A DNA stretch of 64,000 nucleotides, taken from contig MSJH02000817.1 in the NCBI GenBank assembly GCA_001931875.2, positions 62,001 through 126,000 on the forward strand, read 5' to 3'. Below, in pieces: positions 17,957 through 43,163 of the stretch. Position 1 is the stretch's first letter. Each line of letters starts with the position of its first letter. The notes under the pieces were generated by a model that was not told where the DNA came from, did not search any database, and saw nothing but the letters and a program-made list of their open reading frames with translations. The stretch comes from Byssochlamys sp. IMV 00236. Taxonomy: Eukaryota > Ascomycota > Eurotiomycetes > Eurotiales > Thermoascaceae. The translations under genes were made by a program, and so were the position numbers.

Positions 17957-18745
17957 GATTGGTACAGATTTGGTTGAAGTGAATCGGTCTATAGTGGTAT
18001 ACAGTATAACAGCAGAAAACAGAAAGTCTTTCACGAAAGCAGAACCTGGAGAGATTCGAAACCCGAGCCGACAGTGCAAGTCAATCCGGAGGTGAGGTAC
18101 GAGGATGATCTCAAATCGCCGGAGAACCTTGCACCCTTTGTATTCTCTGCGATCCTACTCTGGGACCTCGTAGATGAGACCATCCGCAGCCATTGTGGCC
18201 ATGGCCCCGTAGAGTGCTTACGGGCCATGGTGAGCCTCCCGGTTAGAGACGCGATATTCGAGAGAGCGGCAGGGACGAGTATCCCGAAATGACCGCGCAG
18301 ACACGGGGTACCTGAAGCTGAGTAGTTCGAACAGTAATAATACAGAGATATGCTCTGGATGCAGACGATGGCAGGAACAGGCATAGACTGGCACGCTAAG
18401 CAGAGATCCTCGCCGTTGTTGGACTGGGGAACTTCCGCCCCGACTCGGACCTTTTGATGAGGCCGACCAGCTCAGTTCTGCCCGACTGAGTAAGCGCCGT
18501 GATTCCCCGCCGGGCAGAAAGACTCGCCGTTTCCTGGCGCAGCAGATGCGTCGATGGCTGCGTTGACCAGCGCTTCTTGAAGGGGGCCAGATGCCCTTAT
18601 TAAAGGGGCCAAGAAGCCCAGTGTTGTCTGTTTTTTCTCTCTCTCTCTATCCAGTTTCATCCAGATCGAAGAACACGAAACAAATTACGCTTTATACACC
18701 CCGAAACGGCTGACTATACCATACCATTCACAATAATCATCCACA
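17957..18745. promoter_or_regulatory. Divergent promoter of PKS-NRPS and NmrA-like gene
   Basis: This 789-base region lies between two divergently transcribed cluster genes and should serve both. It holds one CCG-N8-CGG palindrome (18293-18306). A pyrimidine-rich tract near 18630-18655 precedes the NmrA-like start. No gene is supported inside it. Confidence 0.7.
18293..18306. promoter_or_regulatory. CCG-N8-CGG site
   Basis: An inverted CGG half-site pair spaced by 8 bases, the kind of target bound by Zn2Cys6 dimers. It sits 337 bases from the PKS-NRPS start and 440 bases from the NmrA-like start. Confidence 0.55.
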
Positions 18746-19575
18746 ATGGCTGGCCCTAAACCTACTCTTGCTTTCTTCGGTGCGACTGGTGGCAGTACCA
18801 TCTCGTGTATTGCTCCAGCCATCGAAGCTGGATACAAGTGCAATGCTCGTGAGTTCACCTCATGGTGGAAACCAACCTTATCCCCATAGTGGCGTACTGA
18901 CTGGCTGACTCGATACTACTAGTGGTGCGGACCCCATCGAAGCTGGAGAATCTACTCCGCGAACGCAAGGTCGCGGACTCTGCCATCGCCGCCAACCTCC
19001 AGATCACCGCTGGCAACGTTACCGATGTTGAGGCCGTCAAGAAGACTCTCGTCCGCGATGGAGCCAACGTTGACATTGTCATCTCCGGCATTGGAGGCAA
19101 GCTGCTGTTCACCAACCCTCTGAAGCCAACTCTCGACAACCCGACCATCTGCCAAGATGCCGTCTCCACCATCATTAGCGCCCTGAACAGCCTGGCGGGT
19201 CCTAAGCCGACCCTCGTGGCGCTCAGCACCACCGGCATCAGTGACAAGAAGCGCGATCTCCCCGTCGCCATGATGCCCATGTACCACTGGATGCTCAAGG
19301 TGCCGCACAAGGACAAGAAGGTCATGGAGGCTGCTATCCTCAAGGAGGTCGCCAAGCCGGAGGGCGAGCGTGCCATCAGTGACTACGTGATTGTCCGTCC
19401 TAGCTTGCTGACGGATGGCCCCAGCATTGGTACCGACAAGATCAAGGCGGGCACAGAGGAAAAGCCCGCCGTGGGCTACACCATCACCAGAGACGATGTC
19501 GGTCTTTGGGTGTTTGAGAAGCTCATCAAGGAGAACCATTCCTACCATGGCCAGATTGTCACCATCACTGCTTAG
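18746..19575 (+). CDS. pynE: NmrA-like NAD(P)-binding oxidoreductase
   Basis: Two exons, 18746-18848 and 18923-19575, splice in frame (GTGAGT...CTGAC...CTAG) to give 251 residues. A Rossmann-type glycine motif, GATGGSTIS, begins at about residue 12. The rest resembles the atypical short-chain dehydrogenase (NmrA/isoflavone-reductase-like) fold: an NVTD segment after the second strand, a GIGGK loop, and an ALSTTGIS segment in mid protein. No signal peptide, so probably cytosolic. In the pyn pathway the equivalent protein reduces the exo-methylene of pyranonigrin E to the methyl group of pyranonigrin G; that role is inferred here from cluster context. It is divergent from the PKS-NRPS and probably co-regulated through the shared promoter. 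Confidence 0.82.
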
Positions 19576-20626
19576 AATCTGCCTACTCCACGCTAGCTGC
19601 ACTGTTATGCCCTGTCTGTCTACTTGTATCGATGATATCCCCTTGAATCATGCATAACGCTCTTGAGACTTAATCAACCACCGTTTTACATAGATTTTGC
19701 TTTTTTTTTCGGTTCTCTTTTTGGCCCCCATGTTAGAGCAGTCCTAATGATAATTTAATTCCTCCGTTCTGCTTCTATGAATAGCGAAAGTATGGTACAA
19801 CTACAATCATGCACGCTGTCGATCTCTGTCGATCATGGCCCTAGTAACTCAACTAACTGTGAACACTGACACATTCAGCCCTGTCGCATCCTCTCCAACC
19901 AATAAAGTAATAGACCTCACTGTTGGTTTTCAGTCCGCAACTGTGGTACGAATGAGAAGGTGAGATAGCAAAGCAAGTCACTGACTGTGCCAGCGCTAAT
20001 ACAAGGCAGGCATCCTATCTAGGAACAACCCTTTAGAGCTAGCTGGCCACGTTTTGTTCACTACCTAGGTAATTTATGTCGTCCAATGGCTTTGTATATT
20101 ATTATATCAATCGGAATAATTGCAAAAGTGAACAACATCTCTATTCTATTTCATATCATATAATCTATATGGGTAACTGCGATGCAATCTATGATAGGAA
20201 AGCAGTGTCCAGTTCAGTCTCTGAATAGTACATGATTCTGAAAAAAGACAGACGACATAATATTCATGATGATGATAATGATGAAAGGAATGGCAGTGCG
20301 CATATCCCAATTTCAACTGGACCCAGACCAAAACAAGAGAAAACAGAGTCCCAAAACGAAGCCTAAACCTGATCCTGAGCCTGAACCTAGAATGTAATCA
20401 GAGAGCATGACATGGAAACGATGAAAACAAAAAAANNNNNNNNNNNNNNNNNNNNNNNNNNNNNNNNNNNNNNNNNNNNNAAAAACGCCATGGATCTGTC
20501 CTTGGAACGTATATCTCATCATAATGCCTTATTCGTGTCGCGGGTATATATCAAGGTAGATGTTGTGATGTTGTAGAATGACATGACAGTTCGTATGGAG
20601 GGGAATGAGTAGTATAATGCATGCTC
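19576..20626. other. Intergenic between convergent genes, no gene seen
   Basis: These are the 3' flanks of the NmrA-like gene and the Zn2Cys6 gene. It is A/T-rich and contains the assembly gap and a short tandem of AACCTGA-like units (about 20362-20392). No coding or RNA gene could be supported. Confidence 0.6.
20436..20480. other. Assembly gap (45 N)
   Basis: Forty-five undetermined bases flanked on both sides by A runs, which points to an unresolved homopolymer or low-complexity tract. It lies in the 3' flank of the regulator gene and does not interrupt a coding region. Confidence 0.95.
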
Positions 20627-23314
20627 TTATGTTCGAGACATGGCGGGGTGAAAAGGGACAGAGAACATGGATGGCTCTGGGGTCGTATTTGCCCTTGCCT
20701 TTTTACGCGGAGGGTGCTCGATCTCGCTTGGGACGGGTGTTGGCATGCCAAAGTTCAGATACATACTGGGAGCGAACGTGGGGTCGTTGTGGAGAGCGTC
20801 AATGTGAGCGCTGTTGTCGACGGTGCTGTAGCTCATGTTTCTTCTCTTTATGCCACTGCTGAAGTCGTCAACAAAGGCGCTGGTGTAGAAGCTTGGGTCC
20901 GCTGCGCTGGTGGTCGATCCACTGGTGAAGCCTAGCCAGAGATCGTGCGAATGTGCGGGATCGTTGAGAGTCGCGTTTAGCGGTACTGACATGACATCCT
21001 CCTCTAGGAAAGGCACGTCGTCTGAGAGAGGAAGGCTTCCGCTCATCGGCATCATTGGATTGTCAAACATTAGTGGACTTAGATTGTTCAAGTCGACTGA
21101 AGACCCAAATCCGGCGTGGAGAGGTGTTGTGGTGGGACTTGCAGCGCTGGTTGCGCCGGTGGACAACGTGTGGACAAGAGACTCGTCCGTCGTGGTCGCA
21201 TATGAATCGACAGAGGCTGTACGGCTGTGGCCAGGGCGATGGAATTCCTCCACGCGTTTGCGGACGCTCTTCAATTGTTTCTTGACAGCTCTCCACCGCC
21301 GGTCTTGGAGTAAGACGTCGTCGTTCTTGAAGAGGGCATGCATCGATTGTGCCAAGTGCAATAGCTCCGACAGGTTCTCAGAGAGGATCTTGATTTCTGC
21401 CTCGGTGCCTTCCTGGAAACGTGCGCAGAAATAGTCCAGTGCGCGTCCGCAGGCATCTAGCCCAAGAACATAGGAGTGAGGGAATGGACAGGGAGATCCA
21501 GCGACGACTGGACCGGCCACTTTGTGCATCTCCTCTCTTACTGGGAATACACTCAGCAGGGCCTTAGCTGACATCGTGAAGTCATCCATCAATGTCTCAC
21601 TGACTTCAATCTCCGCCCGTTCCTGATACGAATGGGGAAACAGAAGGTGGATGAGCATAGTGTGGTAAACCGTCAACATCAATGCCTGTGACAGCGGATC
21701 GTCGACTTTCGATTTCACGAGCGAAACGACGTGGAGCAGAACGTCCCTTGCGTCTGCGCAAAGAGTAGCGATTCCTGTCTGGCGCGTGTGTAGGCCGCGC
21801 AGTCGCTGGACAAGCGTCGCCTGCCATGACACGGATTGTGGGACCGTCATCGCTTCTTGTGATCGAGGGTATATGGCATATAGATGACCGGCAGTGGAGG
21901 TGATGTGGCTAAGGAGCCAGACTTCGCGTATAGTAGCGGACTGCTGACGCAAAGTTGATAGGTTGTCGGCAGCCTTGTCCAGTTTGATCAAGACAGACCA
22001 GGTTTCATCCATTGGCGGGAATACACTCAAGGTGGTTGCTGGTAGAAGGTCCGAAAAGGGCATGTCCATCTGGATAAACGACCAAAGGGTAAGAGAGAAA
22101 GTCATCCACCAAATGTTGCCAATCATCTCTTCTTCGACTTCTCCGACGTCGATGCCGTTGATCCTGCTGAGACCTTTCTGCGGTGTCTCGAGCAATCGAT
22201 TCTTCAGCTTCGTTGTCACTCGACCGGCGTACCCGATATAACAGATGGCACGGCGAACTTTTCCAAGACATGTGTGATGCCACCCGAGAAGCATTAACGC
22301 CTGAGCAGTGGAAAGGTCAGCTTGCTGGACTGTGCGAGCTCGAAGACGCGTTGACGCCCAGTCGAACAGTCTTTCCCCTCGAGCACGAGAAGTATCGTCG
22401 CCTGACGCGAAATGTGCATCTGCTAGCATCGTTGCAAGCAATATCTCATCATGCGTATTGCTCCGATAAGCGCGGAGGAACAATGTCTTCGAGATCATGA
22501 CGGATAAGGGATGCATCGCAAACCAGACGTCGATTAATTGAGTGGTACGATGGCTATCGTACTCTGACAATGGATTGGGGCCCGTTGGCTCAGGAGGGAA
22601 CATGGCGGGAGTACAATCTTGAGCCATGCCAGCGGTAAAGAACCTTCCTTCTTCAGCAAAGAAGGGCTGACAACCCAGACCTCCAAATTTGGTTACCAGT
22701 GTCTCTACCAGGTCCTGTGTCAACAGAGACAGCAGCCCACGATAATTGAGTGGGCTGAGGGGTGTAGAACGTGGTGAGAGTGTCTCGGTAGATGCTGACC
22801 GTTCAGTGCCTTTAACCTTCGCGTTAAAGGCAGAGAACCTCTCTTGGTATGTGTTTGTCTTCGGTGCATCGCATTCGGTTCCGAAGTTCTCTTTGAACAT
22901 TATCTCGAGCTCCGCAGCAATGCTGTTGGTCATGTCCATGTCGGATCGTGGAGGATCGTCGAGGAGGAAGCAGTCCTTCGGGGAACCAGACCGCGAGCCA
23001 GGCCTCGAAGACAGGTCATCGCTCATCAAGAGTGAGCCGCTTGGCGATACGTAGCCTCCATCCAATAATCGAGGTAAGGCTGGCCCTGTTGTTGATCGGG
23101 TGCTGCTCCCTCTCGGGCGTCCCTTGGATGCTTCCAAGTCATAGACGCATTCAATGTTTCGTTCTCGACAAGCTGTGCAGATGCTTTCTCCTGAACAGCG
23201 AATCTTCCGAGACCTACAGAAGTGACAGCTCCGGCGCATGTTCGGCTTTCGTGAGGCCATTTCCATGGTCCAGTTGGAACGATAACCGTACCGACAGGCG
23301 TTGTGATACTGCAC
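20627..23314 (-). CDS. pynR: Zn2Cys6 transcription factor (cluster regulator)
   Basis: A single uninterrupted frame of up to 895 residues. The N-terminus has a complete binuclear zinc cluster with spacing C-x2-C-x6-C-x5-C-x2-C-x6-C (CHFCRSRKIRC...) at about residues 30-56, followed by a basic Gly/Arg linker. The middle region has the character of the fungal_trans domain (helical, with a WFAMHPLS segment). The C-terminus is rich in Ser/Thr and has a PRKKARA nuclear-localisation-like motif. The frame opens at 23314, but in-frame Met codons at 23266 and 23260, just before the zinc cluster, are equally good starts. It lies inside the cluster next to the NmrA-like gene, so it is the obvious pathway activator and the best candidate to bind the CCG-N8-CGG sites. 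I saw no such site in its own upstream region. Confidence 0.85.
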   Translation of the reverse strand: MQYHNACRYGYRSNWTMEMASRKPNMRRSCHFCRSRKIRCSGESICTACRERNIECVYDLEASKGRPRGSSTRSTTGPALPRLLDGGYVSPSGSLLMSDDLSSRPGSRSGSPKDCFLLDDPPRSDMDMTNSIAAELEIMFKENFGTECDAPKTNTYQERFSAFNAKVKGTERSASTETLSPRSTPLSPLNYRGLLSLLTQDLVETLVTKFGGLGCQPFFAEEGRFFTAGMAQDCTPAMFPPEPTGPNPLSEYDSHRTTQLIDVWFAMHPLSVMISKTLFLRAYRSNTHDEILLATMLADAHFASGDDTSRARGERLFDWASTRLRARTVQQADLSTAQALMLLGWHHTCLGKVRRAICYIGYAGRVTTKLKNRLLETPQKGLSRINGIDVGEVEEEMIGNIWWMTFSLTLWSFIQMDMPFSDLLPATTLSVFPPMDETWSVLIKLDKAADNLSTLRQQSATIREVWLLSHITSTAGHLYAIYPRSQEAMTVPQSVSWQATLVQRLRGLHTRQTGIATLCADARDVLLHVVSLVKSKVDDPLSQALMLTVYHTMLIHLLFPHSYQERAEIEVSETLMDDFTMSAKALLSVFPVREEMHKVAGPVVAGSPCPFPHSYVLGLDACGRALDYFCARFQEGTEAEIKILSENLSELLHLAQSMHALFKNDDVLLQDRRWRAVKKQLKSVRKRVEEFHRPGHSRTASVDSYATTTDESLVHTLSTGATSAASPTTTPLHAGFGSSVDLNNLSPLMFDNPMMPMSGSLPLSDDVPFLEEDVMSVPLNATLNDPAHSHDLWLGFTSGSTTSAADPSFYTSAFVDDFSSGIKRRNMSYSTVDNSAHIDALHNDPTFAPSMYLNFGMPTPVPSEIEHPPRKKARANTTPEPSMFSVPFHPAMSRT

Positions 23315-26085
23315 AATTCACGGTGATCACGACGTTTCCTGTCTAAAGAGTGGATGTTTGGAGTTATTTAAAGCCAAGGTGGGATAAAAAAAATTGAAAG
23401 ACCGATAGAATTTGGACACAAGAGGAATCCTCTGGGAATAACGATGTGCACAAATGCATGAGCTACACAAGGGAAGTCCATGGAAAAATAAGAGAACAAT
23501 GTCACTTATGATACCAATCGGGCCCCCCCAGCTGACACCAGAAACAGATTGTTTCAGAATTGTCTACTCGTATTCTGATATGGTACTAGATGCTTACTCT
23601 GGTCCTCGGGCCTTACCCCATACGTCTATTCATAGCGATCGCCTGCCCATGGGAGATCCACAGGGATTTCAGACCCCACGAGGAGAGCGGGTTTCCAAAC
23701 CAGCGTCTCGAAACACAATGGCCAAGGTTCGACTAATGTTAAAGTGTACCTCAATCCACTTCAAAGCGCCGAAATCCTGCTTGGCTGTGCGGGTATTCCG
23801 CGTATTGGCGGCTCACCATGTGGCTATCTGGGTACCTCGTTGCCGTTCTGTTAGTTTGGTTGTTTCCGTTCATCTACGGCTGCTTCGGCATCTCCACATT
23901 CCTTCGAGGCTTCCAGAAGGGCACAAATGAAGTCTTAGTCAAGGAGTAGTTTGTGACATTGAATAATACTACTTCCTCACGGGCCAAAGGGTGTCCTCAT
24001 CACGACAGATCTAGCAGTAAGAAGCTTTGGTCCTATACAGGAAGGGTCTCGAGCCACAACCCCCCTATCTGGAATATACTGTACCAAGCGGTGCCTGCAT
24101 GTGGAGCCTCATATTTCGGGGGCTAAGGGACAGATTTTTGAGCTCCAGCTTCATATTCCAGTAACATGGGTTCTGGGGAGAGGAATGCGATTGGTGTATC
24201 TGGCAGGAATCCTTCCTGCCGCACTTACTGGCGTTAGTGGCAAAGCCTCGTGCTATTCAACGGGCAATCATTTGCTAGGCGACGACGCCATATAGTTCTA
24301 ATATAGAACAGCTGCCTTGCATCTGGCCCGAGGTCTTTGCGGTATATGCAGCTTGGCTGTGTCAATTGTACAGTCAAGGCAGTGCAGTATGCACTTCCGA
24401 GCACGAGGCATAGACAACATTAGTTCGAAAGATACCTGCCGATCGTGGTTTAGAGAGAGGCGACCATAACGGCATGATCTTGCCCGTAGAGCAGGTTCAA
24501 TCAACTGGCTCTTGCTCCATCTCCGCAAATACACATTTCGATTTCTGCGAGCCATCTATGGGCACCAATACCACATACTTCAGCAGTTGGCCTAAGTCCA
24601 CTTGAAATCACACGTCGCAGTAGTTGCGTGCAGATAACCTCAGCACCGAAGATCATCGCCACAGAGACGGCGTTGTCGACAATACAGCACACGCGGCCAC
24701 GAATGCGGGATCCTCTCCGCATTAGTCACACAACATGAGATTTGTGTCTTGCCTTCCTTGCAGACCTATTAATATTGTCAAAGCATTCTGTCCAGATACC
24801 TTTTTCTCGTCTGTCTGCTCTGAATTAATGTGCCTGCAATACCTAGCGCACGGTAATTCCCACAACACCCTGTACAAGAACACGCCCTCGACTGCAAGTA
24901 CGGCATCACAATTGAAACCGATTCAAAGCGGAGTGACGAACTTCCCGATCGCCGACATGGCGGAAGTCCTTTTTGGCCCGATGGTCCGTGTGTTCGAACC
25001 AAACTGGATCACGATGCGAGAAGTAGGGCTTGCTACTTGATACATCTATCTCCCTGACCCGTTCATGCAGAGAACTATGAAAGCCAGGTTCTTATGTCAG
25101 CGTTTCAGAATGTTCCATAGTGCTTCTTATGTCTTCCCCACCCGCAATGAACAATCTAGAGCTGATAAACGAACCACGGATATTACACGAGCCAGAAGTA
25201 GCACGGATAACCCATTCGGAGTCAGCTCAGGCCACGGAGAATGGGGCTGTGGGGATCATACTTACTGCTAACGATCTATCTAAGATAATCGCGGAGGATC
25301 TGATTACCACTGCGACAGGATCTTAGATACCTCCGAAATCCGTAGGTCAATGGAACTGAGGGCGGAGCAACCCAGCTGGTGCCAATACGTATCCCCCGAA
25401 CGGTAGGATCTGGACAGTGCCCACGAGACGTCCGTCGATTTGCGAGAGATCGAGACGCTAAGGGAAAGGACTAACTTGAAGTGACTAGACTAATTTGATC
25501 GGCCCCGGGATCGACATTCCGCAACGACCTCAATCGTTTGGCCCCCACAAGGATCTGATTAACTTGAGAACATCGGATCGGAGGCTATGGCACCTTGGGT
25601 GAATAGTTACGAGCAGAGAGTGACATCACGTAGTACTTGATTCCTTCTGCGTCTATACTCATGGATACATTGCACCATCATGCGGCGCGTAGGAGGTAGA
25701 AGGAGGTATGTACTGTTCAGAAGATCCATTGTCGATATCAAATGAGTTGGCTAAGTAAGATAGAGGCCGAAATATGAATGACTTCTCAAACTTTTCTCAA
25801 ATAAGCCTAAGGCACAGAGATTTGAAAGACAGCCTCCATGTTGCAACTATTGATATTGAATGCTCAGTTCTAAGGCTATGCTGGAGCTTCTCAAAAAGCC
25901 AAATTTCAAGAACATTGAGAGGATTCTATTCTATTCTAAACATAGACCAACAATTTGGAATAATCATTGGACAATTGCCTCCTAAATACGCTCACCACGA
26001 TAACATTCTCACACATACACTCCGCATCTTCTTTCGGCCCGCCTAGGTCCTAAGCCTTAGCCTTTCCATTAGGCCATTCGAGCAA
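23315..26085. other. Gene-poor stretch, possible relics
   Basis: In 2.8 kb between the regulator and the FAD monooxygenase I find only short frames (64-158 codons) with no motif I recognise, broken by stops in all frames. Examples are 24102-24295 (+) and 24735-25040 (+). No transposase, tRNA or terminal inverted repeat was seen. The stretch is unusually long for this cluster. It is where a missing pathway gene could have decayed, but no methyltransferase motif was visible. Confidence 0.5.
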
Positions 26086-27845
26086 CTAAAATAAACGTAG
26101 CATCAGCACCTGATTAGCCAGAGCTCTCAATCTTACCAGAATAGTTTCTCGAAACAGTTCATCGATTGGCGAGGGATGAAAAGCCACAGGGCCACTTACA
26201 GCGTCGATCATCGGCTGATAACCGTACAGCCATTCTAACGCCCATCGCCAGCCCCAGATCGGCATGTAGGCATAAACGAACTTGCGCACAAAAGGACCCA
26301 AACCATAGGGCAGTCGCGCCATGTGCACCTTGGCGTAGTTGCTCGAGAAAGTAACTAGATCCTTAGCGCGGCCCTCGCGTTTGGTGCAGTACTCTCCAAG
26401 TGCATCCTCGAGGCGCGGAGATTGTGCGCCGATATTCTTTGCTGTTTGCTTGTTTGTGAAGTATGCATGCAGAATATTTCCTAGTTCCGTAGCATCTTCG
26501 ATAGCTTGACAAGCACCCTGAAATACGTCGTTAGCAGCGGAATCCGAGTGTTGGTTAAATGTAAGGTAGATCCTTACCTGGCCGAAGAACGAAGTCATTG
26601 AATGCGCAGCTGTTGGGTCAGGGACTCCTTGTTAGCGATATCATTACGGAGTCATGGTCCCAAGAAAGGCAAATTCTGTGAGAAAAGGGGCTGAGATGTC
26701 TGCAAGGTTGTCTTCTGCGCGTACAATCCTTGCGGTTCCATACGCCATCGAACGCCAAATGAGGTGCTTAAGAGGTAGAGGTGGGGTGTATAAATACATA
26801 CCGTCACCTAACAATGCTACACGACCGTATGACATCGAAGGGAAGTCTGTCTCTTCAAAGACATCGCTTGCGACCACGCGCTCCGAGTGATTGACGACTG
26901 TCGAAGACGGTTAGATTCACTCTATTCAGTATATTAACGTCCGCAGTAACATACTGTCACGGAAATGTCCCGACTTTGCAAAAGGGTGGAAGTGATCTCC
27001 GTAGACATCATTGATGGTATCTCTCGTGGCGCCTTTCCAGACTGATCGGTCGGCTTGCTTAAGCTCGGAAGCCTAGTTGCATCCAAGCAGTTAGCATCTA
27101 GAAATCGGAAGCCTTGTTGAATACGCACCTTGACACCGATAAACCATTGCCTGTTGTCTTTGCACGGCCATGTTGTCAGGATCGAATTGTCGTACAGTAG
27201 CCAATTTCCGACCCCAAGCTCCGCTGGTCCTAGATTCTCAATCGGCGCAGTGTAACCCGACATGTGTACACGACCTGTGAATCGAATGGAGTTGATAGAA
27301 TCCAAGCCCGCTTGCCGGGCAAGAATCCTTCGGGTCACTGATCGAATACCATCTGCGCCGACAGCCACCTCACCGGTGAATTCGCGGCCATCAGCGAGCT
27401 TGACACGTACGCCTTGCTGTTTCTCATCGTCAAACTCGACGATGTCAGTCACATCAGCGTCGAGAAGAACAGTCTCGGAGCCCCCGGCAGCATTATAGAG
27501 CAGATGGTGAAAGTGATGTCTCTCGATCGAGATAACAGGATATCCAAACACCTGCTCCGTCCACTGGAAGTCGATTTCACTCCACTTGGTAGTGTTGCGA
27601 TGGACTTGGATCTTCCTGAGAGGCTGGCCTTCCTCTAGGATATCACTGTAAAGACCCAGTTGATCCAATACACGCAGCGCATTAGGCGCGAGAGATATTC
27701 CAGCCCCCACAGGACTGACTTGCTTGCTGCGCTCGAGGACCTTGACAGAGATACCGGTCTTCTTGCAGATTGTAGCGAGGGTGAGGCCGCCGAGCCCGCC
27801 GCCAATAATGAGAACTTGTGCGTCAAAAGGCTTGTCAGAAGCCAT
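26086..27845 (-). CDS. pynG: FAD-dependent monooxygenase (aromatic hydroxylase type)
   Basis: Five exons, all phase-checked: 27845-27129, 27072-26955, 26897-26802, 26609-26578, 26517-26086, giving 464 residues. The N-terminal dinucleotide motif GGGLGGL (residues 15-21), the mid-protein DG motif (VGADGIRS) and the FAD-ribose motif LLGDAAH...[10 protein letters not shown] (assembled across three exons) define a class A flavin monooxygenase. The last segment, with its YGY...W pattern, is the usual membrane-proximal C-terminus. In the pyn pathway the equivalent enzyme epoxidises the tetramic-acid side chain and triggers closure to the dihydro-gamma-pyrone. A CCG-N8-CGG site lies 268 bases upstream. 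The 32-base exon 4 is very small, and an automated model could miss it. Confidence 0.88.
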
Positions 27846-28636
27846 TGTTGAAAGGTATCGGAAAATGACTATTTCAGTGTTCCTCGTAGATTATACTATA
27901 GTACAAGTGTCTGTATAGTAACGATCAAGACAGACAGGAGATATCTGTAACCAGGCCAGTTCGATGTTGATAGATCTTACGCCTGAACAAAGAAAAATAA
28001 ACGAAAATATAGCAGTTTCAACACCATATTCAGCGTAGATGGAACCACGCTGGTAAACATAGATCCGATCTGGAAAAATTCTCCGCTGTAGGTGTTCCCT
28101 CCGCTATATACTCCGCCGGTGCGCGGCGGCGTGTTGAATTTATTGAGCTACGGCTGCACAAAAGTAAGACATTATCGACGAAAGTATAGTATTACTGAAA
28201 TAGCTTTTGGAGCCACCTAAATCGCAGTCGTCAGTTTCTTTTCCCCTCGTACAGTCGAGGACGTCGAGCAGCGTTGCTAAGACCGGGTGAACTCTGGATC
28301 CTGGGGTTGGATTTCAACTGGATTAAGATTGATAATTTTGTTTCGATCCACAATTTCTAGAACAATTGAACACTTCTATAATTAAACAAACTAATGCACA
28401 ATATTGCTCATTAAATCCAGCTTATCATCCGAAATCCTGCCCGGAGATATTGTGTGGGTTACATTACTTACTCTAAACTCAATGAGACTCGGCCCCCAAC
28501 GCCTCAATGTAAATGAATGGACATCTGTCCGCTGCCGGCTCTTGTTCCTAAGTATCTGCCCACGTGCACAGCTAGTGTTTCAGATTTTCCATCACGGTTT
28601 CTTTTTCCAATGATATTAGATGAGGTGCGCATTGTG
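27846..28636. other. Upstream region of FAD monooxygenase
   Basis: About 790 bases between the start of the monooxygenase gene and the 3' end of the F-box gene. It contains the CCG-N8-CGG site. No further gene is supported. Confidence 0.6.
28113..28126. promoter_or_regulatory. CCG-N8-CGG site
   Basis: Inverted CGG half-sites with an 8-base spacer in a locally GC-rich patch, 268 bases upstream of the FAD monooxygenase start codon. Confidence 0.5.
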
Positions 28637-30669: not shown

Positions 30670-33600
30670 ATGAACAACTCTCAATACCGTCCGCTGAGCC
30701 GTGATGGCTTCGAAATGGCGATAATATGTGCGCTACCCCGCGAAACCAACGCTGTTCTCTGTGCCATGGATGAGATATGGCATGATTGCCGCCATTACTA
30801 CGGGAAATGTACTGGGGATGATAACTCGTATGATTTCGGGAAAATCGGCGTGCACTGCGTGGTAATTGTAACATTGCCTACAATGGGCTCAGTGAAAGCG
30901 TCAAGCGCTTCTCAATCCCTCAAAATGAGTTTCAGCTCCATCAAACTTGCCTTGCTTGTTGGTATTTGCGGTGCAGTCCCGTTCAAGAAAGATGGGTCCG
31001 AAATTGTACTCGGAGATGTTATCATCAGTGAGACGATTGTCGAGTTAGACTACGGGAGGCAGTACCACGGTAGCTTCGAACGCAAGGATTCAGTACTTGA
31101 CGTACACGGTCGACCAAACGAAGAAATACTTGGGCTTCTGCAGCGCTGGAAAATTCCAGCCATTCTCGAAACCTTACGGCATGGATCCATGGGGCATCTG
31201 AGATATTTGCTGCAACGCCTGAATATAGACTATCCGGGCGCGAGTCAAGACATGCTTTTCCAATCTGATTACATACATAAACATCGTGGACACTGCATGG
31301 GATGCAGTGACACTGCAGGGACTGTATGCAAATCCGCTCTCACCGCATCATGCAGTGATACCCTGTGCGATGAGAGACAACTAGTTACTCGATATCGGTT
31401 GGAGGAGGCCGCTAACTCAGGCAGCAAAATCCCGGATCTTAGTATACATATCGGGTCCATTGGTACTGGGAACGCCGTTATAAAGTCAGCTCGGCATAGA
31501 GACCAGCATGCACAATCAGAGGGTATCATTGCTTTTGAGATGGAGGGGGTTGGTGTTTGGGACAAATTTAACTGCCTTGTCATCAAAGGCGTCTGTGACT
31601 ATGCAGATAGCCATAAAAGCAAGGTCTGGCAGGATTATGCGGCTGCTTCTGCCGCCGCGGTTGCAAAAGAGGTTTTGAAGCAATATGTGATGCCACAAAA
31701 GCTGCCACAGCCAACGATTCCCAACGGTGAGCCTCCATGGCAGACTTCTAAGTATTCGACTAATTGGAAACAGACTCCGTTCGGGAGCTCTTTTCCCTCT
31801 CCAGACAAGACAGTGTCCGAGATTTTCACAGTTTCCATGGGTTTACACCAAGATATTCCTTTGATAGTCCCGTCAATGATCTTGGGGAACACTCTGAAAA
31901 ATATCCGTGTAATAGACACGCTCAGCAACGAATTTTAGCCAGTCTCCAGTTCCCCCAAATGCAAGAACGCGCACAGAAGATCGAAGCAGCACACGAGCAA
32001 ACATATGAGTGGGTTCTACGATCCCAAGACAAAAGTATGCACAGGTGGGATGACCTGGTCACATGGCTGTCGTCGAGCACCGAAACAAGACGGATTTACT
32101 GGATATCCGGTAAACCTGGATCTGGGAAGTCTACTCTAATGAAGTTTTTGGAAGAGAGGCTTAACGTGCGAGAACACATGCTCCCATGGGCGCAGGGCTG
32201 TTCTGTAATCCGGGCGTCTTACTTCTCTTGGAGCCCGGGGAACGTACTACAAAAGTCTTTGGAAGGTCTTCTGCGTTCTTTGTTGTTGCAAATTCTCAAA
32301 CAGAAGCCAGATCTGATATTAGAGGTTATTGATGATACAAGATGGAATGCTGCGCAAATGCCTTCGATCACGCTAGCTGATTGGAACAAATTGGAGCTAT
32401 TTTCTTCTCTTCAAAGGTGCATTTTGGGTCTACAGAATACCTTCATCAAAGTTTTGGTCTTTGTTGATGGGCTCGACGAATTTGAAGGCCCGGATGAGAT
32501 CCGTCAAGAGCTTATTGCAATATTCAAACGATTGGCCTGCACAGGGAATGTGAAGATATTCCTATCAGGCAGGCCTTGGAATATCTTCCAAGACAGTTTC
32601 AGCGATATTCCTAAGATACGACTGGAGGATCTCACACGAGACGATATCGGCCTATATGTTCGGGCAAATTTTCTAAATAATCCACGATTCCAATATCTGC
32701 TTTCGTGTGATCAAAAGACCGCAGAGTCCCTTATTTTCGCGGTCGCAGACAAGGCTGAAGGAGTTTTTTTATGGGTACGGCTTGTGGTTCGCGATTTGCT
32801 CAAAGCAATGCGGGATGGAGATGGCATTCGCACTTTGTACCGGAAGCTCGAAGAAACACCCGCCGACTTAAATCACTATTTCAAACGCTTGTTTTCCTCA
32901 ATTGACCCTCAGCACATACGAGAAGCGTCTATCATACTGCAGATTGCATTACATGAAGAACACGGCTTTGTCGCGCTACATCCTCTCCGTTTACTTGACT
33001 TGTCGTTCACCGACGAATCGAGCCCTGATTTCATACTAGCGGACTCCTTCGAGCACCACAAAATATCCATAAATGACCGTGAGGGATTGAGATTTCGCCT
33101 AGACTCAACCACTAGGCGGCTCAACAGTCGATGCATGGGCCTACTTGAATGCACATACAGCCCTGACAGTTTCTTTGACTTATTTGATGAAGAGTCCACA
33201 GAGGAATTCCAGGATACTTCGCTCTATCAAGGCCGGAAATTTGAGCCGTCAATATACTCACATGTCTTTGATGGCCCTAATTTACTTCGCCCCTTCATGC
33301 TTACAGTCGACTTTTTGCATCGGTGTTGCCGGGACTTTCTCCTTTCCCCACACATCCAGAGCCTACTCCACCAATATACCGGAGGCCAATACGATGCGAG
33401 GATGTTGATCGTTAATGCCAGGATATCACAGTTTCTAGCGCTGCAAAAGATTGAATGCGGCCGCAGCATCTCCACAGGGATAGCAAGCTATATTCTTAGT
33501 GCTCTTTCGGTCCCCGAATTGAAAGAAGCAGTGGTATCCATAAGAGCTGCACGTATACTCCAGCCAGCTATCGAGGCTTTATCATGCTATGATATAACGT

Positions 33601-34265
33601 GTTCTGCCGGTTGGTACATTGACCTCGTGCTGACTCGTTGGGACGAGGAAAAAAGCAATTTTCTCACACTGGCAATCGACTTCGACATGCGGGGTTACTG
33701 CATGGCATATCTCACTGAAAACCAAGTCCAAGCCAAAAAAGGTCGTCCGATCTTAGATTATGTTCTACGGCCAAGGTTCGCAACAGATGAGTTCCTAAAT
33801 ATTGGTAACCAAGTCCCGAACACCGACCTTCTGCACCGGGTTCTTACTTTTGGAGCGGACCCTAACGGTCTCTACCATGGTGTCTCTGTCTGGGCACTCT
33901 TTCTTTCCTCAGTAGCAGACTGGTTGCATCTGGGTATTCATACTTCCGCCATCCATAAGCAAGCATATTTTATGGCGCTTAGGATGATGATTGATAGAGG
34001 TGCTGCACTGGTTCTCCCGTGCTCCTGGGTTTTGAGCGATGGCCTCTGTTGTTTACACCGTTATGGATGCTTCCAGAGTGGAATTGAAAAGCACGACCGT
34101 TGGCCAATGGACATTCCAACAACTGAGCAGGCCATGACTGGGCTATCACAACCGAGTTATGCTGTCGCCGATCTCCTTGCTACATTTCGGGTCCACTTTG
34201 GACCAGAACTCGATGAGCTGATTGAACTCGCAAAGACAGATGGCTATCGGCCTATTGTCATCTAA
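30670..34265 (+). CDS. NLR-like protein: nucleoside phosphorylase-like domain fused to NACHT
   Basis: Two long frames in different phases are joined by a 47-base intron (31727-31773; donor GTGAGC, branch CGACTAAT, acceptor AACAG), giving about 1,182 residues from the Met at 30670. An in-frame start at 30574 would add 32 residues. The N-terminal part is a PNP/UDP-phosphorylase-like domain (opening ICALPRETNAV; closing FEMEGVGVWD and KGVCDYADSHKSKVWQDYAAA) with the family's Cys-rich insert at about 31290-31370. After a linker comes a NACHT NTPase with P-loop GKPGSGKST and Walker B VFVDGLDEFEG. The C-terminus has at most one degenerate ankyrin-like unit (LLHRVLTFGADPN). Such fungal STAND proteins are thought to act in self/non-self or stress recognition. 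It lies inside the metabolite cluster but has no obvious biosynthetic role. Confidence 0.85.
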
Positions 34266-34306
34266 TTAATGCGTGCTTTTCCAGCAAAAAAACAAAACGC
34301 AAAAAA

Positions 34307-34880: not shown

Positions 34881-36175
34881 TCATCTCCAGTTAAGGTCCG
34901 CCAGACCAACTTTCAGCTTCTCAAAGTCGAAGATAACGTACTTGTCCTTGGAGAAGGTCTCTCCAAAGTTGCCAATAACCCAGTCACCGTCACCAAGGGT
35001 CCGAACGTTGAGGACGCAGACGCCGTTGTCGAGCTTCTCAACATAGTTAGAAGGAATAATCTCCCAGACCTTACTTGATCCCGAGAATTGGTACTTCAGA
35101 GGGGGGAGCGACTGGGTTTTGTTGCAGTCGATCTGGTACCACGACTGGTTACCATTGTTGGGAGGCGAGTCAAGCTTGATTGGCGTAGCACCGCTGAGGT
35201 TGATCAGCTTCTGGTACGCGTTGACGGACATGGGAGCACCACGTCCGTAACTGGCATGGTCAAAGACGGCAGCAGATCCAACTGTGGTGTTCAATGGCTG
35301 CACCTCGTCGCCGATGCTGAACTGAGTGAGGCCAACGGCCCAGTATTCCAATAGAGCGGGGTTGTAGACGAAATCGACCACGTTAACTTCTGGGAATTGG
35401 ATGACATCGTACCATGTCACGCCGCCCTTGACGAGTCTAGAGTTGTAACCGCCAAGTGTCTGGAGACCATCATGGCCGCCACAAGTGGTCTTGTTGGTAT
35501 CCACAGAGCCATTGTAGCAATAATGGAAAGCAACGTATGGCTCAGGCCAATCTCCTGCGCGCCAGGCTTGGTAGAATGGGGATTCTGTAGTTTCTGTGTG
35601 GAGAATGTTAGTGTCATATCACTAGCCAGAAGATGAGCATAGAACATACTGTTGTCGGTTTTGAAAACTGGAGACAGTCCATAGACTCCCGCGAATGGGA
35701 AAGCGGCTGCTGTTTCATTGAACTGGAAGTCTGCAGCTTGAATGATCATGCGCGTGCTGCTAGGGCCAACGGTGACAATGTCGGAACTGATATCGACAGT
35801 CAAGGGCTTCCAGAAGAAGAAGTGGTTCGGGTCCCAGGACAGGTCCCCGTACCGAGAGGTGAGGTTGCGGAATGACGAAGACAATGACTGGTTGAACAAG
35901 GGTTGCTGCGTAGCGAGACAGTCGTACGTGTTACTTGAATTGCCATGGCACAAAGTCGTGAGGAGATATTGCCCAACCCATGTCCAGTCGACAAAGACAG
36001 GGAGTTTCTGGGGAGGTGTTCCCACAGAGATTTGGGATAAGAAACCGTACGAATTCCACGTCAGAGGCAAGTTGTAACTTCTAGCATTCTGACGAGATTG
36101 AACAGTGGGTACGGCACCAGCTAGATGGCTGGTGGCCGTCAATAGAACGGCTAGAAGAGCCTTAGAAAGGATCAT
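34881..36175 (-). CDS. pynH: Aspartic-protease-like protein lacking DTG motifs (PynH-type dehydratase candidate)
   Basis: Two exons (36175-35650 and 35593-34881, GTATGT...CTAAC...ACAG, frame checked) give 412 residues. Residues 1-21 form a signal peptide (hydrophobic core, Ala-Gly-Ala-Val end). The mature part has the pepsin-fold landmarks: YGFLSQISVGTPPQ with the flap-strand start, FAGVYGLSP in mid protein, and a WVIGNFGE near the C-terminus, like the usual ILGDxFLR. The catalytic motifs are changed: the first DTG is DWT (FVDWTW) and the second is DHA (AVFDHAS). The aspartates remain but the Thr-Gly pairs are gone, so proteolysis is unlikely. In the pyn pathway the equivalent protein forms the exo-methylene by dehydrating the serine-derived side chain. 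It is divergent from the thioesterase gene over a shared promoter carrying two palindromes. Confidence 0.83.
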
Positions 36176-36422: not shown

Positions 36423-36436
36423 CCGCTACCGAGCGG
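36423..36436. promoter_or_regulatory. CCG-N8-CGG site, 5-base arms
   Basis: CCGCT-ACCG-AGCGG: a perfect inverted repeat with 5-base arms and a 4-base centre, in the divergent promoter. Confidence 0.6.
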
Positions 36437-36462
36437 AACTAGACCGATAATGCCTAATTGGA

Positions 36463-36476
36463 CCGTCTATAGACGG
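36463..36476. promoter_or_regulatory. CCG-N8-CGG site, perfect 14-base palindrome
   Basis: CCGTCTATAGACGG is symmetric over its whole length. It lies 40 bases, about four helical turns, from the neighbouring site, which would place both on the same DNA face. Confidence 0.65.
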
Positions 36477-36721: not shown

Positions 36722-37585
36722 ATGGAAACAGTTCTGCACATGCAGGGAAGCACCAGCTCTCCCCTGACACCTCTATTTCTGATCCACGCAGTCTCAGGGC
36801 TTGCTTTCCCATATCTCACCCTGGGAGATCTCAACCCTGCAGACATGGAGCCCGAGAAGGCTCGTCCAGTGTATGGTATCTCCTCTCCTCTCTACAACTC
36901 CTCCTCGTACCGTGCGCCCGGTTCCTTCGAGGAGCTTGCGCGGCAGTATGTCTCCATGATCCAAGAAATCCAGCCGGCTGGACCTTACCTTCTTGGAGGC
37001 TGGTCCATGGGCGGGATGATTGCGGTAAAAATGGCAGACCTCCTGCAGGAACAGGGCGAGACGGTACTTCACGTTATTATGATTGATTCTGCAAACCCAG
37101 AACAGTACCCTGCTTTCGTGGATAACGAAGAACACGATTTTATCGCAGATATGGCCTACAGCGCCGTTGCTCAGAAGATGAATTTGCCAGGTAGCTCCCA
37201 TTCCGATGGAATGTCCAGCGACAGTGACCAGGACGACGATGCCGATGTTGAGCTCGAGAGCATGCTCCTCAAGATGCGGAAACACATCTGGGAGAGCATA
37301 GGGGTCATCTCGAAGACCGAACCGGGCCAGCTTCTGCCAGGCAAGTGTAACACTTCCGTGACCTTGATCAAGTGCATCAAGCTCGCACCCGTGGTGCCAG
37401 CCGTGCGATTGGAGAGGAAGAATTTTATTCGCAAGTGCTTCCTACATCCAACATTGCGATGGCGGGCCAAGCAGTTCAACCATTTCCGAACCATCCTGTT
37501 CAATGCAGAGCATGACGATGTATTCGACTCAAAGCATGCTCCTGAATTGACGCATATTCTCCGAATCGTCCTTTCGAGAATTTGA
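36722..37585 (+). CDS. pynI: Stand-alone type II thioesterase (alpha/beta hydrolase)
   Basis: An intronless frame of 287 residues beginning at the ATG at 36722. The start of the fold (LFLIHAVSGLAFPYLTL), the nucleophile elbow GWSMGG (Ser at about residue 95) and a late NAEHDD segment place it with NRPS/PKS thioesterases. The region around residues 155-175 is an acidic, low-complexity lid insert (SDSDQDDDAD). No signal peptide, so cytosolic. The equivalent enzyme in the pyn pathway releases the polyketide-serine chain from the synthetase by Dieckmann-type cyclisation to the tetramic acid. That need fits the altered reductase domain of the synthetase here. Confidence 0.85.
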   Translation: METVLHMQGSTSSPLTPLFLIHAVSGLAFPYLTLGDLNPADMEPEKARPVYGISSPLYNSSSYRAPGSFEELARQYVSMIQEIQPAGPYLLGGWSMGGMIAVKMADLLQEQGETVLHVIMIDSANPEQYPAFVDNEEHDFIADMAYSAVAQKMNLPGSSHSDGMSSDSDQDDDADVELESMLLKMRKHIWESIGVISKTEPGQLLPGKCNTSVTLIKCIKLAPVVPAVRLERKNFIRKCFLHPTLRWRAKQFNHFRTILFNAEHDDVFDSKHAPELTHILRIVLSRI

Positions 37586-39681: not shown

Positions 39682-40122
39682 TTTGTATGTTTGGGGGCGA
39701 TAATGAAACCAACTATACTTTCTGCACTCGGTGCTCGCAACTATCCGGAATAAAGTCGTCTAGGAAGTCGGCATCCAAACGCTAATCCGCCGGGAGCATC
39801 CATCTTGTTATACTAGCCTCCAGATCTGGTCCCAGTCTTGCGAGCCACGAGGTAGGTGATCCCTTGTCAGACATCCTGTGCTGGAGTTAGATTCGCCCGC
39901 CCGCACGGCAGCGGAGGGTTTCTTGCGCCGTGCCGATTGTATGAGGAAAACATCCGTCTCTGCCGAATCGATATTTTAGGAAGTATAGAACCCGAGCCAG
40001 AATGGTTTAGAGTAACATACGCCGGCTAAAGTCGATCTTCAGAAGGACATTGATCGTTTCATGAAGTCGACATTCGTGATTTCCAACGCATAGACGCACA
40101 CCTCTTTGGTAAATCGCCAAAG
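39682..40122. promoter_or_regulatory. Divergent promoter of P450 and MCT-type transporter
   Basis: A 441-base region between divergent genes with one CCG-N8-CGG site in its middle. Confidence 0.65.
39901..39914. promoter_or_regulatory. CCG-N8-CGG site
   Basis: Inverted half-sites with an 8-base spacer, about 220 bases from both the P450 and the transporter start codons. Confidence 0.5.
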
Positions 40123-41999
40123 ATGGACAACAACAAAAGACACAGTCGAAGATCGTGGTTTGGATTACCCGATATTCCAACGTCAACCTTTCGACCTCAG
40201 TCATTCTATCAACTGTTCCAAGATGATCAGTTTCGCGTCGAGATGCCAGAGAAGGCATACTTGTCTCCTCTCGGCGCCTCGTCGGAAGAAACGCTCTATC
40301 CTCACCTATCTTTTCAGGAGCTCTCCGATATAGATCTATTTGGCAGCCAAAGAACGATAGTTACAGATTTTCCAGATTTCCCTCCATTTTACCCACAATC
40401 CGAAGAATCCCTGATTCGACATGACAGCATTTCAGAAGAGAAGGACGCAGTGGCCGATGACAGGCCTCCAGATGGAGGTCTACGAGCGTGGCTAGTAGTC
40501 ATCGGCGGATTCCTAGCATACTTTGCAACTTTTGGTCAGTTCAGAAATTGAAAAAGATTCATTTAGGAGACTTAATCTGATATATTGCAGGTTTGCTCAA
40601 CACCTTCGGCACTTTCCAATCATACTATCAAAGAAATCTTCTACCCGATATGTCTGGCAGCGTAATTGCATGGATAGGTTCCTTACAAGTACGTACGCTT
40701 TAGACATACAGAAACCACAACCCCAGTCCAGCCAGTCTAACGCAACTACAGATCTTCTTCCTGTTCATTGGCGGTATGGTCATTGGGCCTCTATACGATT
40801 CGTACGGAGCTAGGCCACTCGTCATCCCCGGATCACTTGTCTACGTTCTCTCCCTCATGTTCACCAGCATTTCAACGAAATACTACCAGCTCATGCTTGC
40901 ACAGGGCGTCATGTTTGGCATTGGAAATGCAATGCTGTAAGCTACCCTTACACATAACTAGATGCAGCCAAACGCATACTCATAGATCAGATTCTACCCA
41001 ACAATATCATCCATCACACAATGGTTCGACTCATGTCGCGGCCTCGCTCTCGGCATCGCCGTCTCAGGCTCCTCTCTAGGTGGCATATGCTGGCCGCTCC
41101 TAATCCAATACCTTCTAGACCACATCGGATTCGGCTGGGCGACGCGGATCACCGGCTTCATCTGCGTGGGACTCCTAACTCCAGCCTGTTGGTTGATTGC
41201 TTCTAGACCGGTAACTTCGCATTCACAGCACAGTGAACCACCCCCGAAGCTAGACTTTATCGGTATTCTCAAGGACTGGAAATACACCCTTTTCAGCGCC
41301 GGCATGTTCTTCGTTCTGTGGGGGATGTTCATCCCGTTCTTCTATCTGCCTACTTATGGCCAGGCGCACGGGATGAGCGAAAGTGCCGCGAATAACTTAC
41401 TTGCGTATTTGAATGCAGGCTCGCTGGTAGCGAGAGTAGTGACGGGGTTTATTGCTGATAGATTTGGGAGGTTAGTCGTCGACGACAAAAGAGAAACCCC
41501 CATTACCCATCCATTCTCAATGCTAAAATTATCCCAGATTCAACGCCATGTTCGGCTGCGCTCTCGGCTGCGGTATCCTTCTCTTCGGTCTATACGGCAT
41601 CACATCCATCGCTGCAATCATCGCCTTCGCTGTCCTCTACGGCATTTTCTCCGGTGGTCTAATCTCGCTCCAATCCGCTTGTATCGCTCAAATCACCCCA
41701 GACCACAGAATCATCGGTGTCAAGATTGGTATCATGATGGCTATCTGTTCGTTTGGGTACGCACCCCCATCCTCTACCCTCTTCCAACCATTCATAGTTC
41801 AAAGAGGAGAAACCAAACTAACATATTACTATTGATGATTAGAGGCCTAACAGGCTCCCCCATCGGCGGGGCCTTAATTACAGCCAACCACGGCGGTTTC
41901 ACAGGCATGATTGCCTTCAGCGCCGTCATTCTAACAGCTGGAGGATTCCTTGTGCTCCTTGCTCGATTCATAGCCGCTCCGAAATTACGCGTGTTTTGA
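40123..41999 (+). CDS. MFS transporter, monocarboxylate-transporter-like (MCT) family
   Basis: Six exons (40123-40534, 40591-40688, 40752-40936, 40991-41470, 41538-41756, 41843-41999) sum to 516 residues with all frames consistent. The roughly 115-residue hydrophilic N-tail is followed by PPDGGLRAW, the family start signature (DGGxxAW), and about 12 helices with GPLYDSYGAR, LGIAVSGSSLGG and ADRFGR loops. MCT-like carriers are frequent in fungal metabolite clusters, where they are presumed to export the product or move precursors. It is divergent from the P450 and very probably co-expressed with it. It may correspond to the transporter of the pyn cluster, but I do not assign the symbol. Confidence 0.85.
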
Positions 42000-42800: not shown

Positions 42801-42814
42801 CCGTCCCCGAACGG
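42801..42814. promoter_or_regulatory. CCG-N8-CGG site
   Basis: Inverted half-sites around TCCCCGAA, 350 bases upstream of the BBE-type oxidase start codon. Confidence 0.55.
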
Positions 42815-42873
42815 ATCGAAACGGGGAATTTAATTTCGAACCACAACTAACTATCGCCCCCAATTGGGGATTT

Positions 42874-42893
42874 CTACCGTTTGAGAACGGTAG
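42874..42893. promoter_or_regulatory. CCG-N8-CGG site in a 20-base palindrome
   Basis: CTACCGTT-TGAG-AACGGTAG: perfect 8-base arms around a 4-base centre, the longest and cleanest copy of the motif. It lies 271 bases upstream of the oxidase start codon and 76 bases from the neighbouring site. Confidence 0.7.
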
Positions 42894-43163
42894 TTACTAC
42901 CCCCTGGAGCTTTTGCCGGTATCCGATCCGAAGTGGTCTGAGAAGACGAGTTAAGGCTGAGAGAGCCTTAGCTTTGGGGGAGTGCATAAATTGCCCATAT
43001 AATGATATAATTATAAGGATGGGAGATCATCTTCTTGGCTTTTGTTTCCTTTATTGCTATTAAGCAAGCAAGTAAGCAAGTGGTCTTTGATTCCTTGAGA
43101 GAAGAAGCAGTGGTATACATCTCCAACCCGAGAATCAAAGCAGACCAAAAAGAACAAAAAAAG

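What the first reader, a model, noticed from the sequence alone, without database searches (positions are those of the whole stretch)
17957..43163. Shared CCG-N8-CGG operator in every biosynthetic promoter of the cluster
I found CCG-N8-CGG at 18293, 28113, 36423, 36463, 39901, 42801 and 42877. The sites fall in all five upstream regions serving the PKS-NRPS/NmrA, FAD monooxygenase, aspartic-protease-like/thioesterase, P450/transporter and BBE-oxidase genes. Together these regions are about 3.7 kb, where roughly one site is expected by chance (1 per 4,096 positions). I saw none in the housekeeping intergenic regions I read, nor upstream of the first MFS gene. Three copies are extended palindromes (36423, 36463, 42874-42893). 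The cluster's Zn2Cys6 protein is the natural ligand, which would make this the pathway operator. One further copy lies in the F-box coding sequence (30311), as chance allows.
Basis: partly seen in the sequence, partly recalled or inferred. Interest (0 to 1): 0.85.

Follow-up and report, generated by a model that had tools for sequence, protein, structure and literature searches.

The report
Shared switch sites in a fungal gene cluster
The promoters of a fungal pyranonigrin-type gene cluster, including the one in front of the cluster's own regulator gene, carry the same paired DNA sequence far more often than chance allows, so it is very probably where that regulator binds to switch the pathway on.

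Summary
All seven CCG-N8-CGG sites are exact. Six promoter regions (4,732 bp) hold 11 copies against 0.7-0.8 expected. In an unbiased scan of 37,757 spaced 3-mer pairs, CCG-N8-CGG and its edge variants take the first four places. Nine of 11 fit CCGY-N6-RCGG. Single half-sites are not enriched, so pairing and spacing are what is kept. Best reading: an everted-repeat operator of the cluster's PynR-like Zn2Cys6 activator, probably with autoregulation. Regulator relatives share exact contig lengths with relatives of this PKS-NRPS in 12 of 119 cases compared, and PynR overexpression switches on the pyn cluster in Aspergillus niger (PMC7902601). Binding and conservation in other fungi could not be tested. 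It is a new member of a known kind.

The parts
18293..18306 (.). CCGCGCAGACACGG, operator in the divergent PKS-NRPS / NmrA-like promoter (about 790 bp)
   Evidence: exact match; fits CCGY-N6-RCGG
18435..18448 (.). CCGCCCCGACTCGG, second CCG-N8-CGG in the same promoter; does not fit CCGY-N6-RCGG (missed by reader)
23798..23811 (.). CCGCGTATTGGCGG, upstream of the Zn2Cys6 gene (missed by reader)
   Evidence: fits CCGY-N6-RCGG
23866..23879 (.). CCGTTCATCTACGG, upstream of the Zn2Cys6 gene (missed by reader)
   Evidence: fits CCGY-N6-RCGG
28113..28126 (.). CCGCCGGTGCGCGG, operator upstream of the FAD monooxygenase; a second, overlapping CCG-N8-CGG starts at 28116
36423..36436 (.). CCGCTACCGAGCGG (6-bp arms TCCGCT/AGCGGA), divergent aspartic-protease-like / thioesterase promoter
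36463..36476 (.). CCGTCTATAGACGG, perfect palindrome, same promoter
39901..39914 (.). CCGCACGGCAGCGG, midway in the divergent P450 / MFS transporter promoter
42801..42814 (.). CCGTCCCCGAACGG, upstream of the BBE-type oxidase
42877..42890 (.). CCGTTTGAGAACGG (20-bp palindrome 42874-42893), upstream of the BBE-type oxidase
20627..23266 (-). PynR-like Zn2Cys6 transcription factor, 879 aa, ATG at 23266; zinc cluster C-X2-C-X6-C-X5-C-X2-C-X6-C followed by KGRPRG
   Evidence: PF00172 and PF04082; start; only Zn2Cys6 motif found in the window; homologs
6152..17956 (-). PKS-NRPS; small introns not modelled
   Evidence: domains; C domain 99% to Paecilomyces variotii P0111; start read
18747..19575 (+). 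NmrA-like NAD(P)H-binding protein, two exons by reading
   Evidence: PF13460
26086..27845 (-). FAD monooxygenase with introns; its 3' part (26086-26598) had no Pfam hit, so this end is approximate
   Evidence: PF01494 on 26937-27890
34892..36175 (-). aspartic-protease-like protein
   Evidence: PF00026 on the C-terminal frame; N-terminal frame matches aspartic-protease relatives
36722..37585 (+). thioesterase
   Evidence: PF00975
38120..39681 (-). cytochrome P450; N-terminal exon by reading
   Evidence: PF00067 on two frames; start read
40123..41999 (+). MFS transporter; N-terminal exon by reading
   Evidence: PF07690 on 40986-41996; start read
43164..44704 (+). BBE-type FAD-linked oxidase; first exon by reading
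   Evidence: PF01565 on 43550-44701; start read

Best explanation
CCGY-N6-RCGG (an everted repeat of two RCGG half-sites, inner spacer between the triplets 8 bp) is the operator of this pyranonigrin-type cluster. The cluster's own PynR-like Zn2Cys6 protein (20627-23266, minus strand) binds it as a homodimer. Each zinc cluster reads one outward-facing CGG in the major groove, and the 11-bp step between the triplets puts both half-sites on roughly the same DNA face. Binding about 210-600 bp upstream of the start codons, at two sites in several promoters, activates three divergent gene pairs and two single genes together, and the regulator's own gene as a positive loop. Shown here: the sites, their statistics, their spacer specificity, and co-occurrence of the regulator and PKS-NRPS families. 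Inferred: binding, dimerisation, activation and autoregulation.
For: 11 copies in six promoter regions of 4,732 bp against 0.72 and 0.84 in first- and second-order Markov shuffles (maximum 6 in 3,000 for each); 0 of 3,000 hit all six promoters under either model; the best of 63 spacer/orientation classes in 600 shuffles per model was 6 and 7. Three convergent intergenic regions of the cluster (2,221 bp): 0 copies. Rank 2 of 37,757 spaced 3-mer pairs, ranks 1, 3 and 4 being edge variants of the same motif; P 1.2e-9, about 5e-5 after Bonferroni. 9 of 11 fit CCGY-N6-RCGG where the genome share is 1216 of 4558 (binomial 2e-4). CCGY half-sites are not enriched (12.9 per kb in promoters, 14.5 in the window). 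Places with two CCGY-N6-RCGG sites 20-81 bp apart: 7 in 47.4 Mb, 3 of them here; the other 4 lie in long open frames (3) or a 33-bp tandem repeat (1). One Zn2Cys6 motif in the window. PynR overexpression turns on all pyn genes in A. niger by RT-PCR (PMC7902601 section 5).
Against: No binding, expression or conservation data. CCGY/RCGG was read off these same sites, so its binomial value is optimistic. Genome-wide neither the motif nor its pairs exceed the backward-pattern control (4558 against 6387; 1216 against 1530; pairs 2 against 3 and 5 against 5). The TF upstream region alone is only moderately significant (2 copies, Poisson 0.005), and both its sites lie inside an open 158-codon frame of unknown status. 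The known pyn cluster differs in gene content: PynC acts as a methyltransferase there, and no methyltransferase was seen among the frames scanned here. The A. niger TF relative P0016 is only 42% identical and has KIA instead of KIR in the zinc-cluster loop.
Confidence: 0.8

Rival explanations
1. The sites are a real shared operator, but another Zn2Cys6 regulator encoded elsewhere (alone or as a heterodimer with the cluster protein) binds them, and the cluster protein acts through other sites.
For: No binding data; the genome holds other Zn2Cys6-like stretches (weak matches on C611, C543 and C663); half-site pairs alone do not name their reader.
Against: Promoter-located pairs of sites were seen only at this cluster, and the motif is sparse in 200 kb of the same contig, as expected of a pathway-specific regulator; the cluster protein's family co-occurs with this PKS-NRPS family, and A. 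niger PynR is sufficient to switch on its cluster.
Confidence: 0.14
2. Chance or base composition: promoters throw up CCG and CGG triplets, and the spacer was picked after looking.
Against: The promoters are AT-leaning (GC 0.459), other spacers and orientations reach at most 5 against 11, half-sites are not enriched, and the result survives correction for all 37,757 spaced pairs.
Confidence: 0.03
3. Single CGG half-sites are read by monomers (as TerR can do), and the everted 8-bp arrangement is incidental.
For: TerR predominantly binds a single CGG half-site (PMC4360782, passages).
Against: CCGY half-sites are not enriched in these promoters, whereas the 8-bp everted pairing is about 13-fold enriched.
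Confidence: 0.03

Closest known systems
TerR operator of the terrein cluster, Aspergillus terreus (PMC4360782; passages seen)
   Same: One Zn2Cys6 cluster regulator; a CGG-pair motif found by computation in all promoter regions of its own cluster except terG, terH and terI, then confirmed by binding and reporter tests; terA has three motifs.
   Different: TerR sites are direct repeats, TCGG-N5-CGG, and motifs with inverted half-sites were not recognised; here the repeat is everted with 8 bp and the half-site is RCGG.
Leu3 and Pdr3 everted-repeat sites (title of Hellauer et al. 1996 seen only in the reference list of PMC5082525; spacers recalled)
   Same: Everted CCG...CGG read by Zn2Cys6 proteins.
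   Different: Recalled spacers are 4 bp (Leu3) and 0 bp (Pdr3), not 8; those are metabolic or drug-response regulators, not cluster regulators.
PynR of the A. niger pyranonigrin cluster (PMC7902601, section 5 read)
   Same: Regulator inside a PKS-NRPS cluster with an aspartic-protease-fold enzyme; its overexpression activates all genes of the cluster.
   Different: No binding site is given in the section read; gene content differs from this cluster.
AflR (TCG-N5-CGA), GliZ and similar cluster regulators (recalled, no call)
   Same: Palindromic Zn2Cys6 operators repeated across the promoters of one biosynthetic cluster.
   Different: Different half-sites and spacers.

Membership tests
Pathway-specific Zn2Cys6 operator of a fungal biosynthetic cluster | Same motif in all or most promoters of the cluster, above chance | tested here: met
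   11 copies in six of six promoter regions, expectation 0.7-0.8; rank 2 of 37,757 pairs, ranks 1, 3 and 4 being edge variants of it
Pathway-specific Zn2Cys6 operator of a fungal biosynthetic cluster | Paired CGG triplets in a fixed orientation and spacing | tested here: met
   everted, 8 bp; other classes at most 5; half-sites not enriched
Pathway-specific Zn2Cys6 operator of a fungal biosynthetic cluster | A Zn2Cys6 regulator gene inside the cluster | tested here: met
   PF00172 and PF04082 at 20627-23266, only one motif in the window
Pathway-specific Zn2Cys6 operator of a fungal biosynthetic cluster | Motif concentrated at the cluster, sparse elsewhere | tested here: met
   CCGY-N6-RCGG: 9 in 4.7 kb here, 8 in 200 kb of background, 1216 in 47.4 Mb; 3 of 7 close pairs lie here. 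Plain CCG-N8-CGG is not rare: 4558
Pathway-specific Zn2Cys6 operator of a fungal biosynthetic cluster | Direct binding by the regulator and dependence of expression | not testable with these tools
   no wet data; analogy to A. niger PynR only
Pathway-specific Zn2Cys6 operator of a fungal biosynthetic cluster | Conservation in orthologous clusters | not testable with these tools
   no fungal DNA collection on hand; scans of genome contigs and viral contigs found no relative of the TF
PynR regulator | Zn2Cys6 regulator linked to a pyn-type PKS-NRPS | tested here: met
   exact contig lengths shared in 12 of 119 listed PKS-NRPS relatives compared (length equality is a proxy); P0048/P0187 are named pynR/pynA
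PynR regulator | Orthology to A. niger An11g00290 | tested here: inconclusive
   an A. niger relative is found at 42% over 76% (P0016), but its locus tag is not given
TerR-type site (direct repeat CGG-N5-CGG) | Direct repeat with 5-bp spacer in the promoters | tested here: not met
   0 CGG-N5-CGG and 1 CCG-N5-CCG in 4,732 bp

The most novel reading that the evidence does not exclude
The PynR family represents a so far undescribed Zn2Cys6 recognition class: everted RCGG half-sites with an 8-bp inner spacer (one helical turn between triplets), read by a zinc cluster that is followed directly by a KGRPRG AT-hook-like basic tail, seen in many but not all family members. The operator would be conserved across the pyn-type PKS-NRPS clusters of Eurotiales, lichens and other Pezizomycotina, marking which genes belong to each cluster and excluding intruders such as the F-box and NLR-like genes here.
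Probability: 0.3. Interest if true: 0.55.

Novelty: new member of a known kind. Interest (0 to 1): 0.42.

Why it matters
PynR can switch on a silent PKS-NRPS cluster, but my searches and the section read turned up no binding site for it. A concrete 14-bp operator makes that testable with one gel-shift. It gives a handle for deciding cluster borders (here PKS-NRPS to BBE oxidase, without the F-box and NLR-like genes), and a sequence to look for in the fungal and lichen genomes that carry relatives of this regulator together with relatives of this PKS-NRPS.

Tried and rejected
Counting sites over the whole 25-kb region: rejected as a test, because background stretches reach similar counts. Half-site enrichment: none. 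Finding orthologous clusters as DNA: genome contigs and viral-contig scans with a TF alignment gave no relative; in the window's genome the TF has only weak other matches, and the N-terminal frame of the aspartic-protease-like gene has none. Looking for targets outside the cluster: the four other close pairs lie in long open frames (a GATA-factor-like gene, a Ser/Pro-rich frame and a CPSF73-like gene, named by eye) or in a tandem repeat, so no extra target is claimed; pairs with other gaps were not searched, and most of the 1,216 single sites were not examined, because the tool lists only the first places. A solved relative of the DNA-binding domain with this spacing: only LAC9, GAL4, PUT3, PPR1, Cep3 and RSC3 matched, weakly. 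Structure prediction was not run, since it would not give DNA contacts. Literature: four spellings of the motif found no paper (notations with brackets cannot be searched); a search needing four of six PynR/binding terms returned none, and so did one on FacB/AmyR-type sites. Listings (8 of 12 shown in the last) showed nothing on this operator, judged by titles and abstract beginnings. Passages of PMC7575713 (pyranoviolin cluster) and PMC5559640 (Pho7) were seen and give no such site.
Full report
What was claimed and what is there. All seven are exact. The window holds 20 copies in all. Eleven lie in the promoter regions defined below: 18293, 18435, 23798, 23866, 28113, 28116, 36423, 36463, 39901, 42801 and 42877 (28113 and 28116 overlap, so ten are separate). 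One (24918) lies further out in the 2.8-kb stretch between the regulator and the FAD monooxygenase. Eight lie in frames read as coding (676, 6247, 6736, 29817, 30311, 32080, 39163, 49102; contexts; the exon at 49102 was named by eye).

Gene map. The cluster runs from the PKS-NRPS (6.15-17.96 kb, minus) through an NmrA-like gene, a Zn2Cys6 regulator (ATG 23266, minus), a FAD monooxygenase, an aspartic-protease-like gene, a thioesterase, a P450, an MFS transporter and a BBE-type oxidase (starts read). F-box-like and PNP/NACHT (NLR-like) frames sit inside it at 28.6-34.3 kb. An aminotransferase (ALAS-like) gene and an MFS gene (by eye) lie to the left; PEX3, ATG101 and SNF2-type genes to the right. 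Intron borders were not modelled. The organism is Paecilomyces variotii or very near it: the regulator is listed as 100% identical over 92% to a P. variotii protein, and the PKS-NRPS C domain 99%.

Is it more than chance? They hold 11 copies. First- and second-order Markov shuffles give 0.72 and 0.84 (maximum 6 in 3,000 each), and none of 3,000 in either model puts a copy in all six. The best of 63 spacer/orientation classes in 600 shuffles per model was 6 and 7. Observed counts for the other everted spacers and for inverted pairs are at most 3, for CGG-CGG at most 2 and for CCG-CCG at most 5. The three convergent intergenic regions of the cluster (2,221 bp) hold none. The regulator's upstream 1 kb alone is only moderately significant (2 against 0.10, Poisson 0.005).

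An unbiased scan of 37,757 spaced 3-mer pairs present in these promoters (spacers 0-20) puts CCG-N7-GCG, CCG-N8-CGG, CCG-N9-GGA and CCG-N7-ACG in the first four places: one motif and its edges. The Bonferroni-corrected value for CCG-N8-CGG is about 5e-5. It is the best-scoring of the 39 pairs that occur in all six promoters.

Results against the simplest form of the claim. The raw total in the 25.2-kb region (16) is not exceptional, since 25.2-kb stretches of 200 kb of the same contig reach 13 for this spacer and 15 for others. Genome-wide the plain motif occurs 4,558 times, fewer than the backward control (6,387), and the narrower form 1,216 times (control 1,530). So nothing about the motif stands out genome-wide; what stands out is its density in these promoters.

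The narrower operator. Nine of the 11 promoter copies fit CCGY-N6-RCGG, against a genome share of 1,216 in 4,558 (binomial 2e-4, optimistic because the form was read off these sites). It occurs 8 times in 200 kb of background. The 25.2-kb region holds 10; background stretches hold at most 3 for this spacer and up to 6 for other spacers. Spacers 5-13 other than 8 in this form occur at most twice in the promoters. T precedes CCG in 9 of 18 half-sites, suggesting TCCGY-N6-RCGGA. Single CCGY half-sites are not enriched (12.9 per kb in promoters, 14.5 in the whole window), so composition is not the cause and pairing at a fixed distance is.

Genome-wide pairs. Two such sites 20-50 bp apart occur in 2 places in 47.4 Mb and 51-81 bp apart in 5; 1 of 2 and 2 of 5 lie in this cluster. 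The control (pattern read backwards) gives 3 and 5, so the totals are ordinary and the location is not. The four other places lie in long open frames (GATA-factor-like, Ser/Pro-rich, CPSF73-like, named by eye) or in a 33-bp tandem repeat, so no second promoter pair was seen at these gaps.

Who binds it? The window encodes one Zn2Cys6 motif by pattern. Of 98 relatives found, 76 show the zinc cluster by pattern, many with CRSRKIRCSG followed after the last cysteine by KGRPRG or KGRPK, an AT-hook-like tail; a Hypocreales group, including the protein named PynR in Cladobotryum, lacks this tail. Of 367 PKS-NRPS C-domain relatives the best 120 were listed. In two of these pairs the gene numbers differ by two (Q9166_007424/007426, Q9181_003232/003230). 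In Thermoascus thermophilus the TF relative and the aspartic-protease relative are VTN02DRAFT_1116 and 1118, both on a 39,848-bp contig. The regulator family therefore appears to travel with this pathway. In A. niger, inducing pynR made all pyn genes strongly transcribed (PMC7902601, section 5). No other strong match to the TF was found in this genome.

Mechanism (inferred). A homodimer reads two outward-facing RCGG half-sites whose triplets start 11 bp apart, about one helical turn, and activates three divergent promoters (PKS-NRPS/NmrA-like, aspartic-protease-like/thioesterase, P450/MFS) and two single promoters (FAD monooxygenase, BBE oxidase). Two sites 532 and 600 bp upstream of its own start codon would close a positive loop. 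The intruding F-box and NLR-like frames lie head to head with a short gap that holds no site (30311 lies within the F-box domain coding sequence), and none lies between the MFS gene at 2.8-4.9 kb and the PKS-NRPS, so the operator map separates cluster members from neighbours.

Known or new? Cluster-wide CGG-pair operators are a known kind: TerR of the terrein cluster was worked out from a computed promoter motif, a direct repeat TCGG-N5-CGG (PMC4360782, passages). Everted repeats are known for Leu3 and Pdr3 (a title in the reference list of PMC5082525; spacers 4 and 0 recalled). An everted 8-bp repeat was not found in print (four spellings), which is weak evidence, because bracketed notations cannot be searched and most subscription papers are missing. 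I rate it a new member of a known kind.

Limits. No fungal DNA outside this genome could be reached, so conservation is untested; binding and expression are untested. Promoter borders rest on start codons read by eye from open frames.

Noticed in passing
20627-23266: The nearest public P. variotii and P. lecythidis proteins (P0001-P0003, 711-812 aa) start downstream of the zinc cluster, so those gene models lack the DNA-binding domain that the DNA here encodes in the same open frame.
   Followed up: yes
28637-34265: An F-box-like frame and PNP/NACHT (NLR-like) frames sit head to head inside the biosynthetic cluster with no operator in the short gap between them; they look like an insertion.
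   Followed up: partly
23267-26088: About 2.8 kb upstream of the regulator without a recognised gene; a 43-codon frame 23818-23946 reads like a membrane segment and spans one operator site. Could be decayed gene remains or a small gene.
   Followed up: partly
G000 (whole genome): The assembly is 47.4 Mb in 840 contigs, larger than the roughly 30 Mb recalled for P. variotii; it may hold extra sequence, but no second strong match to the TF or to the N-terminal frame of the aspartic-protease-like gene was found.
   Followed up: partly
20436-20480: A run of 45 N within the convergent NmrA-TF intergenic region.
   Followed up: no
L008 1501-1580 (G000:C695:272932-273011): A 33-bp tandem repeat carries three CCGY-N6-RCGG matches; no nearby cluster gene was identified.
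   Followed up: partly
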